Assembly: GCF_019916085.1 (NCBI RefSeq)
Contig: NZ_CP049834.1
Coordinates: 852,501 to 916,500 of the forward strand
DNA length: 64,000 nt
DNA from: Aquirufa lenticrescens
Lineage (GTDB): Bacteria > Bacteroidota > Bacteroidia > Cytophagales > Spirosomataceae
Reading direction: 5' to 3'
Positions within the stretch are counted from its first letter, which is position 1, and every line of letters begins with the position of its first letter. The translations under genes and the position numbers were made by a program. Below the pieces are notes generated by a model. That model was not told the DNA's origin, searched no databases, and worked only from the letters and a program-made list of their open reading frames with translations. Positions 28,650 to 29,164 of the stretch are shown here, piece by piece.

Positions 28650-28680
28650 TTGTATAATTAAGTGACATTCTGTACTTTTG
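28650..28680 (+). promoter_or_regulatory. rpsJ promoter
   Basis: TTG (28650-28652), 20 bases, then TACTTTTG (28673-28680). A good Bacteroidota promoter lying just after the preceding gene; the leader to the rpsJ ATG is ~66 bases. Confidence 0.75.
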
Positions 28681-28694
28681 CAGTCCTAATTAAT

Positions 28695-28746
28695 TTAAGT
28701 AGCGGAGTAAATGGTTCTTTCGCTGCTTAATCATTTAAAGAACCAT
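28695..28746 (+). promoter_or_regulatory. rpsJ leader: two interleaved 10-bp stems, candidate pseudoknot control element
   Basis: Stem A pairs TTAAGTAGCG (28695-28704) with CGCTGCTTAA (28721-28730), ten pairs with one G-U. Stem B pairs ATGGTTCTTT (28711-28720) with AAAGAACCAT (28737-28746), ten perfect pairs. The order is A1-B1-A2-B2, the arrangement of an H-type pseudoknot, with connecting loops of 6, 0 and 6 bases. B2 ends five bases before the rpsJ ATG, so folding would bury the translation start region. The pairing is read directly from the sequence; a regulatory role (for example autogenous control by a ribosomal protein) is inference. Confidence 0.6.
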
Positions 28747-28751
28747 CTTAT

Positions 28752-29057
28752 ATGAATCAAAAAATTCGCATTAAGCTGAAGTCATTTGACCACTCATTGG
28801 TAGACAAATCAGCAGAGAAAATCGTTAAAGCGGTAAAAGCTACAGGAGCAGTTGTTTCTGGCCCTATCCCTCTTCCAACAAAAATTGAGAAATTCACTGT
28901 TTTACGTTCACCACACGTAAACAAGAAAGCACGTGAGCAATTCCAATTATGTACTTACAAGCGCCTAATCGACATCTTCTCTTCTTCTGCTAAAACAGTA
29001 GATGCTTTGATGAAATTAGAATTGCCTTCAGGAGTAGACGTAGAAATCAAGGTTTAA
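28752..29057 (+). CDS. rpsJ: 30S ribosomal protein S10
   Basis: 101 aa. [21 protein letters not shown] at the start and [28 protein letters not shown] are diagnostic for S10. S10 is a 30S head protein and also NusE, the partner of NusB in antitermination. In most bacteria it opens the S10 ribosomal operon (rplC and so on follow) or ends the str operon. Here it stands alone between an unknown membrane protein and rpmH, with its own promoter and a strongly structured leader. Confidence 0.98.
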
Positions 29058-29091: not shown

Positions 29092-29121
29092 TTGATGAAT
29101 AAATATTTTGTTTTACCTTTG
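29092..29121 (+). promoter_or_regulatory. rpmH promoter
   Basis: TTG (29092-29094), 19 bases, then TACCTTTG (29114-29121). Near-consensus; it starts the rpmH-rnpA-protease-tsaB transcript. Confidence 0.8.
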
Positions 29122-29164
29122 CAAGTCCTAATCGATATGATGGGCTGCTTTAACAAATAAAGAA

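What the first reader, a model, noticed from the sequence alone, without database searches (positions are those of the whole stretch)
28695..28746. Interleaved 10-bp stems in the rpsJ leader: candidate pseudoknot regulator of S10
Two perfect or near-perfect 10-bp pairings occur in the order A1-B1-A2-B2 (28695-28704 with 28721-28730; 28711-28720 with 28737-28746), with loops of 6, 0 and 6 bases, between a good promoter and the start codon. The second strand of stem B ends 5 bases before the ATG, so the fold would block initiation. Two such pairings in 52 bases are very unlikely by chance. rpsJ is transcribed alone here, so a dedicated control element would make sense. I do not know of a described S10 leader of this form, but I cannot search.
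Basis: partly seen in the sequence, partly recalled or inferred. Interest (0 to 1): 0.72.

Follow-up and report, generated by a model that had tools for sequence, protein, structure and literature searches.

The report
Conserved RNA pseudoknot before S10 gene
The messenger RNA for ribosomal protein S10 in this bacterium begins with a small knotted RNA fold that relatives have kept through compensating mutations and that sits on the gene's start signal, so it is probably a switch that sets how much S10 is made.

Summary
Two interleaved stems fill 28695-28746 of the rpsJ leader; 0 of 3000 shuffles equal them. In 87 distinct leaders of the family (f1, Spirosomaceae-like) stem A changes sequence but stays paired (80% of cells; 35-47% when slid). 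Stem B has four versions, each with its own partner in 86 of 87. A model of the hairpin hits 180 of 181 family genomes. The same architecture recurs in Sphingobacteriaceae and in five families of another order, with the start codon itself as partner. Best reading: a translational leader, probably autogenous. The loop resembles boxA, the NusB-S10 site, and boxA-like sites are enriched before rpsJ in other Bacteroidia (11 of 181, shuffle mean 0.95); but the rpsJ core does not track rRNA boxA. Ligand, and any effect on translation, are untested. No Rfam match; no description found in the papers searched.

The parts
28650..28680 (+). Promoter-like pair: TTG 28650-28652, 20 nt, TACTTTTG 28673-28680
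   Evidence: Read; similar TTG...TAnnTTTG upstream of many family leaders. The Bacteroidota consensus is recalled, no start site was mapped.
28695..28707 (+). Stem A, 5' strand: 28695-28704 (variable, covarying) plus GAG 28705-28707 (conserved RAG)
28708..28711 (+). Loop 1, UAAA (family YNAA)
28712..28717 (+). Stem B, 5' strand, UGGUUC (the A at 28711 can add a seventh pair here)
28714..28720 (+). boxA-like GUUCUUU inside the pseudoknot
   Evidence: GYTCTTT in 76 of 87 distinct family cores
28718..28730 (+). Stem A, 3' strand: UUU 28718-28720 (pairs with GAG) plus 28721-28730
28731..28739 (+). Loop 3, 9 nt here (at least 8 nt from the 10-bp A2 in the family)
28740..28745 (+). Stem B, 3' strand, GAACCA, ending 6 nt before the AUG
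28752..29057 (+). rpsJ, ribosomal protein S10 (NusE), the only S10 gene found in the genome
28754..28759 (+). Alternative partner of UGGUUC: GAAUCA of the start region (6 of 6 with one G-U)

Best explanation
The rpsJ mRNA begins with an H-type pseudoknot that works as a translational switch for S10. Hairpin A presents a 10-nt loop; the last six loop bases pair with a hexamer just before the AUG (this family) or with the start codon region (other Bacteroidota). With this second stem closed, the start region is in a duplex and 30S binding is blocked; with it open, S10 is made. Free surplus S10, alone or with NusB, most likely recognises the invariant junction (RAG/UUU pairs, AA, boxA-like core) and favours the blocked state, which is negative feedback. 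Shown here: sequence, both stems, covariation, position at the start, spread. Inferred: effect on translation, S10 as ligand, direction of the effect.
For: Stem A: 80.1% of cells paired against 35.2-47.0% slid by 1-3, changes on both sides at all 10 pairs, covariation 0.713 against 0.229, 0 of 500 shuffles as high. Stem B: 71/71, 8/8, 5/5 and 2/2 leaders carry the complement of their own version, other versions' complements 0-2 times; 86 of 86 with a pick that ignores complementarity. The B version changes 8 times on an rpsJ tree, which is only moderately resolved (24 of 84 inner branches starred). RAG/UUU pairs 87 of 87. Model hit in 180 of 181 family genomes. Stem B ends 0-17 nt before the AUG; the 13 leaders whose genes start AUGUC or AUGGC have it 0-2 nt away. 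Same geometry on the start codon outside the family, 11 of 186 distinct leaders against a shuffle mean of 0.41, maximum 2. One model match in the own genome, at rpsJ.
Against: No probing, binding or expression data. In 58 of 86 family leaders the loop could instead pair with the start region, so the upstream hexamer might also act as an anti-sequester that frees the start codon; the sign of the effect is not fixed by the sequence. The element was not found before rpsJ in most other Bacteroidia sampled, so S10 can be controlled without it. No 16S-like sequence was seen (one 16S, sequence only).
Confidence: 0.55

Rival explanations
1. Nus-type autoregulation: the loop is a true boxA bound as single strand by NusB-S10. 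The pseudoknot hides boxA, so NusB-S10 binding and closure of stem B exclude each other, and the bound complex (with RNA polymerase) decides whether rpsJ is translated.
For: Core GYTCTTT in 76 of 87 family leaders; GYTCTTT in the 60 nt before rpsJ in 11 of 181 distinct non-family leaders (10 linear, one the pseudoknot L296) against shuffle mean 0.95, maximum 5, reversed pattern 0, complement 1. A NusB family match is in the genome. rRNA leaders carry GYTCTTT in 9 of the 14 family genomes where I could read one. boxA represses suhB and occurs before rpsJ in three gammaproteobacterial genera (PMC5725501, passages and one section).
Against: The rpsJ core does not track rRNA boxA: G038 and G042 have GTTCTTTGA but rpsJ GGTAC; G043 and G067 have GTTC but rpsJ GGCTC; G057, G058, G070, G080 and G084 have GTTCATT, GTTCCTT or GTTCATA but rpsJ GGTTCTTTC; G085 has GCTC in both. 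11 of 87 cores are not GYTCTTT. The AANA half of the published consensus GYTCTTTAANA is absent from the core.
Confidence: 0.3
2. Sensor of something else (ribosome availability, magnesium, temperature, an sRNA or another protein): the same start-site pseudoknot without S10 as ligand.
For: The structure and position would be the same; no ligand was tested.
Against: The model matches once in the own genome, at rpsJ, and of 25 non-family loci fetched from the class search only one has the match directly before a gene for S10, the others looking like chance hits; a general sensor would be expected at other genes.
Confidence: 0.15
3. Upstream ORF: AUG 28711 starts a 14-codon leader peptide (28711-28755) whose stop overlaps the rpsJ start, giving translational coupling.
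For: GGAG lies 3 nt before this AUG and AUG is kept in 87 of 87 family leaders; stop overlaps the rpsJ start in 31 of 87.
Against: Frame and length are not kept: 27 of 87 stop before rpsJ, 13 inside it, 16 run in frame into it. GGAG is replaced by GAAG and others in about a quarter. The AUG is UAG or AUA-like (AAUAGC) in the Sphingobacteriaceae form.
Confidence: 0.03
4. Chance pairing in an AT-rich leader, or a DNA repeat without RNA function.
For: None found.
Against: 0 of 3000 shuffles; covariation; 180 of 181 family genomes.
Confidence: 0.01

Closest known systems
BoxA-mediated Nus-factor autoregulation (E. coli suhB; putative boxA before rpsJ in three gammaproteobacterial genera; PMC5725501)
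   Same: A boxA-like sequence close to the start codon of a Nus-factor gene, here rpsJ itself.
   Different: Published sites are linear; here the sequence is paired inside a pseudoknot, lacks the AANA half, and does not track rRNA boxA.
Pseudoknot leaders of ribosomal proteins (E. coli S15 rpsO and S4 alpha operon; recalled)
   Same: H-type pseudoknot over the translation start of an r-protein gene.
   Different: Different gene, no recognisable sequence relation, loop can read the start codon itself; ligand not shown. Comparison is from memory.
S10 r-leader of Firmicutes/Clostridia (named in PMC7247131, passages only)
   Same: A predicted leader of the S10 unit.
   Different: Its structure was not seen here, so no structural comparison was made; no Rfam family matched this leader or 12 relatives.
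L4-controlled S10 operon leader of E. coli (PMC10931766, passages)
   Same: Controls the unit that contains rpsJ.
   Different: Regulator is uL4 and the leader is long; in this genome rplD lies in the rplC cluster, not with rpsJ.

Membership tests
Autogenous ribosomal-protein leader RNA | Conserved RNA structure in the 5' leader of an r-protein gene, supported by covariation | tested here: met
Autogenous ribosomal-protein leader RNA | Placed so that it can affect initiation or termination | tested here: met
   Stem B ends 0-17 nt before AUG in 86 of 87; start codon region as partner in others. Placement only.
Autogenous ribosomal-protein leader RNA | The encoded protein binds the RNA and represses | not testable with these tools
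   No binding or expression data
H-type pseudoknot | Two interleaved stems, both supported by comparison | tested here: met
   Stem A; stem B. That both form at once in one molecule was not tested.
boxA / NusB-S10 site | Core GYTCTTT | tested here: met
   Window core GUUCUUU 28714-28720; 76 of 87 family cores, 11 not
boxA / NusB-S10 site | Extended gammaproteobacterial consensus GYTCTTTAANA | tested here: not met
   Core is followed by CGCTG in the window and mostly by CG in the family; consensus
boxA / NusB-S10 site | Same sequence as boxA of the rRNA leaders of the same genome | tested here: not met
   Differs in 9 of the 14 family genomes with a readable rRNA leader, same GYTCTTT in 5 (G022, G048, G078, G085, G086); the window's own rRNA leader could not be found
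boxA / NusB-S10 site | Single-stranded and bound by NusB-S10 | not testable with these tools
   In the proposed fold it is paired
Any Rfam 15 family | Score at or above a gathering threshold | tested here: not met
   Window: only a tRNA; 12 relatives: none
E. coli L4-controlled S10 operon leader | L4 gene in the regulated unit | tested here: not met
   rplD follows rplC at L260, away from rpsJ

The most novel reading that the evidence does not exclude
A widespread S10 (NusE) riboregulator of Bacteroidota in which the NusB-S10 recognition sequence, boxA, is hidden inside a pseudoknot that closes on the rpsJ start codon, so that one short RNA measures free NusB-S10 and ties S10 synthesis to rRNA antitermination. 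The start-codon-pairing form would be ancestral, with Ser codon 2 (AGC or AGU) fitted to the loop, and the Spirosomaceae form derived by moving the partner a few nucleotides upstream.
Probability: 0.27. Interest if true: 0.85.

Novelty: new variant of a known kind. Interest (0 to 1): 0.7.

Why it matters
No S10 leader for Bacteroidota is listed in the passages read of the r-leader survey PMC7247131, and no Rfam family matches. The element is a compact, testable case of how Bacteroidota set r-protein levels, and a possible direct link between S10 as ribosome part and S10 as NusE. It also shows a hairpin loop that reads the start codon, with the partner sitting on the codon in some lineages and just upstream of it in others.

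Tried and rejected
Upstream ORF: rejected, frame and AUG not kept. 16S mimicry: best match of an 18-nt core to one 16S (L140) is 11 of 18, shuffled mean 11.2. Rfam: nothing at gathering score; a lax scan of 161 bases gave seven hits far below gathering, mostly microRNA and similar families. Strict boxA membership: not accepted, see membership test. Other genes under the model: class search, 49 of 396 genomes matched at E up to 0.05, 5 of f1 and 44 others; of the 25 non-f1 loci fetched (L295-L319) only L296 has the match directly before rpsJ, L308 has rpsJ about 1.2 kb away, the other 23 show no S10 in the locus. The best of those, L295 at 36 bits, was not explained. 16S searches in the own genome found nothing, perhaps because such stretches are withheld.

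A first pseudoknot detector that wants contiguous stems recovered the family or start-codon fold as best in 7 of 16 leaders with S10 (L001, L042, L183, L048, L296, L370, L383) and not in 9 (L036, L110, L111, L115, L119, L120, L121, L122, L124), because of mismatches in stem A or one A-C in stem B. The later 10-nt-loop detector was written after seeing those leaders, so its hits are not an independent discovery; its shuffles control the geometry only. It misses L119.

Choices behind the counts: 37 of 38 genus genomes gave S10; G006 and G034 have only fragments and were not used for leaders. L082 and L083 were put into the family set after I had seen the motif in them; the other 99 of the 101 loci were not chosen that way. 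The 101 loci hold duplicates (87 distinct). Enrichment counts L296, which is a pseudoknot, among the 11. The 189 non-family loci are a sample weighted to records found by S10 similarity and to one per family.

Full report
WHAT IS THERE. The window lies in a 2.5-Mb, one-contig genome. Its S10 is 100% identical to that of Aquirufa ecclesiirivi and of a Cytophagaceae MAG, so I take it for an Aquirufa-like member of the Spirosomaceae; the family name is recalled, the tools call it f1. rpsJ (28752-29057) is the only S10 gene found. It follows a 711-aa ORF and precedes genes that read by eye as rpmH and rnpA. rplC, rplD and rplW stand elsewhere, with no rpsJ or fusA directly in front of rplC (L260). 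A promoter of Bacteroidota type (TTG, 20 nt, TACTTTTG; consensus recalled) lies before the leader.

IS IT AN RNA STRUCTURE? I gathered rpsJ leaders of the genus, of the family f1 and of named genomes: 101 loci, 87 distinct leaders, all with the core. Aligned without gaps (81 distinct 40-mers, A1), the ten pairs of stem A form in 80.1% of cells against 35.2-47.0% when slid by 1-3 bases; all ten have changes on both sides; covariation is 0.713 against 0.229 in shuffles, 0 of 500 as high. On an rpsJ tree with modest support, pairs 2-8 change type 24-38 times each. Stem B has four versions: GGTTC (71), GGTAC (8), GGCTC (5), GGTCC (2). Each leader carries the reverse complement of its own version downstream (71/71, 8/8, 5/5, 2/2); complements of other versions occur 0-2 times per group. 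When the 3' strand is picked as the last GnnCC before the ATG, without regard to complementarity, all five pairs are Watson-Crick in 86 of 86; L048 has no such site. The version changes 8 times on the tree, L048 included. A covariance model of the hairpin (R1) hits 180 of 181 family genomes, and the own genome once.

THE CONSERVED FORM. The loop bases RAG and the UUU after stem B's first strand also pair: G-U or A-U, A-U, G-U or A-U in 86 of 87 leaders, and with a U-A swap in L048. With them stem A has up to 13 pairs and 84.7% paired cells, as in the nested MFE. That leaves a 10-nt loop: four bases, usually ending AA, and UGGUUC. Stem B of six pairs then follows with no linker. Loop 3 has at least 8 nt, and stem B ends 0-17 nt before the AUG. 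A 4-nt loop 1 over a 6-bp stem is usual H-type geometry (recalled). Hairpin A alone is worth -14.1 kcal/mol, the B helix -6.3 (6 bp) to -10.8 (10 bp), loop costs not counted.

BEYOND THE FAMILY. L048, an f1 leader without GAACC, can pair its UGAUUC with GAAUCA of its start AUGAAUCA. The class search with R1 gave L296 (family f74) with the same core, whose UGGCUC fits AUGAGCCA. Reading rpsJ leaders of other families showed the same 10-nt loop in f51 (UGACUC with AUGAGUCA; L370, L383), and in the seven records named Sphingobacterium, Mucilaginibacter or Olivibacter (UAGCUC with AUGAGCCA, five of six pairs with one A-C; L110, L111, L115, L119-L122), and in two MAGs (L109, L124). A MAG named Sphingobacteriia (L100) lacks it. 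A pattern asking only for the loop and a compatible start matched 9 of 393 genomes of the order of f51 (probably Bacteroidales; not named by the tools). Five of the nine are S10 genes (L385, L388, L389, L390, L391; families f88, f132, f74 and f195 twice; L389 is the genome of L296), and all five have the hairpin; the other four are not S10 genes. A detector of geometry alone finds 11 of 186 distinct non-family leaders against a shuffle mean of 0.41 (maximum 2), and all 11 carry an AA-ending loop 1 and URRCUC, which it did not require. The perfect combinations GGCUC with Ser codon AGC (f74, f88) and GACUC with AGU (f51, f132) each occur in two families, and no crossed pair was seen among S10 genes; numbers are small. 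In f1, 58 of 86 leaders could pair the loop with the start region six of six, G-U allowed; the 13 whose genes start AUGUC or AUGGC cannot, and there the upstream partner is 0-2 nt from the AUG. What is constant is that the loop reads sequence at the translation start.

HOW IT MAY WORK. The simplest reading is a translational switch: stem B closed, start in duplex, no initiation. As in other r-protein leaders the expected signal is the free protein. Two facts point to the NusE role of S10. The core is GUUCUUU (GYTCTTT in 76 of 87), and GYTCTTT is enriched just upstream of rpsJ in other Bacteroidia: 11 of 181 distinct 60-nt regions (10 linear, one L296), shuffle mean 0.95 and maximum 5, reversed pattern 0, complement 1, next 60 nt upstream 2. 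BoxA is the NusB-S10 site; it represses suhB in E. coli and was found before rpsJ in three gammaproteobacterial genera (PMC5725501, passages and one section). Against this, the rpsJ core does not track rRNA boxA. Of 14 family genomes with a readable rRNA leader, 9 carry GYTCTTT; only 5 have the same GYTCTTT in both places, while G038 and G042 (rpsJ GGTAC), G043 and G067 (rpsJ GGCTC) and G057, G058, G070, G080, G084 (rRNA GTTCATT, GTTCCTT or GTTCATA) do not. I rate S10 as ligand somewhat more likely than not and NusB-S10 through boxA at about 0.3. The direction is inferred from homeostasis; the possible second partner at the start codon leaves room for the opposite sign.

ALTERNATIVES. The upstream ORF is not kept in frame or length and lacks its AUG in the Sphingobacteriaceae form. 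A sensor of something other than S10 is possible. Chance is excluded for the fold.

KNOWN OR NEW. Rfam 15 has no family at gathering score in this leader (lax scan) or in 12 related loci. Passages of the r-leader survey PMC7247131 list S4, S15, S16 and L13 leaders for Bacteroidota lineages and an S10 leader for Firmicutes/Clostridia only. The uS10 section of the review PMC10931766 names boxA and an sRNA, no such leader. Passages of PMC8040213 and PMC2864571 mention none. Searches of open-licence papers gave no description; subscription papers and supplements were not searched. I file it as a new variant of a known kind: an r-protein leader, with a start-reading pseudoknot and a boxA-like core.

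Noticed in passing
L112, L113, L130, L131, L211, L308, L325, L360, L373, L375 (last 60 nt before rpsJ): Linear GTTCTTT, often CGTTCTTT, shortly before rpsJ in Bacteroidia without the pseudoknot: a possible plain boxA.
   Followed up: partly
L212, L252, L253, L254, L255 (last 60 nt before rpsJ): Another conserved stretch, about GGC/GGACGGCTAA with flanking changes, before rpsJ in order-level family f17; may be a different leader element.
   Followed up: no
28679-28690 and about 29119-29131: The starts of the rpsJ and rpmH transcripts look alike: TGCAGTCCTAAT and TGCAAGTCCTAAT right after the promoter-like motifs.
   Followed up: no
L260:2041-2790: About 750 nt without a convincing ORF before rplC in the own genome: room for a leader of the detached rplC cluster.
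   Followed up: no
L143, L146, L148, L152, L140 (rRNA leaders of G080, G070, G057, G058, G084): In these family genomes the boxA-like site of the rRNA leader reads GTTCATT, GTTCATA or GTTCCTT instead of GTTCTTT.
   Followed up: partly
L083: A record named Flavobacterium sp. SUN052 whose rpsJ and leader group with family f1; wrong name or foreign contig.
   Followed up: no
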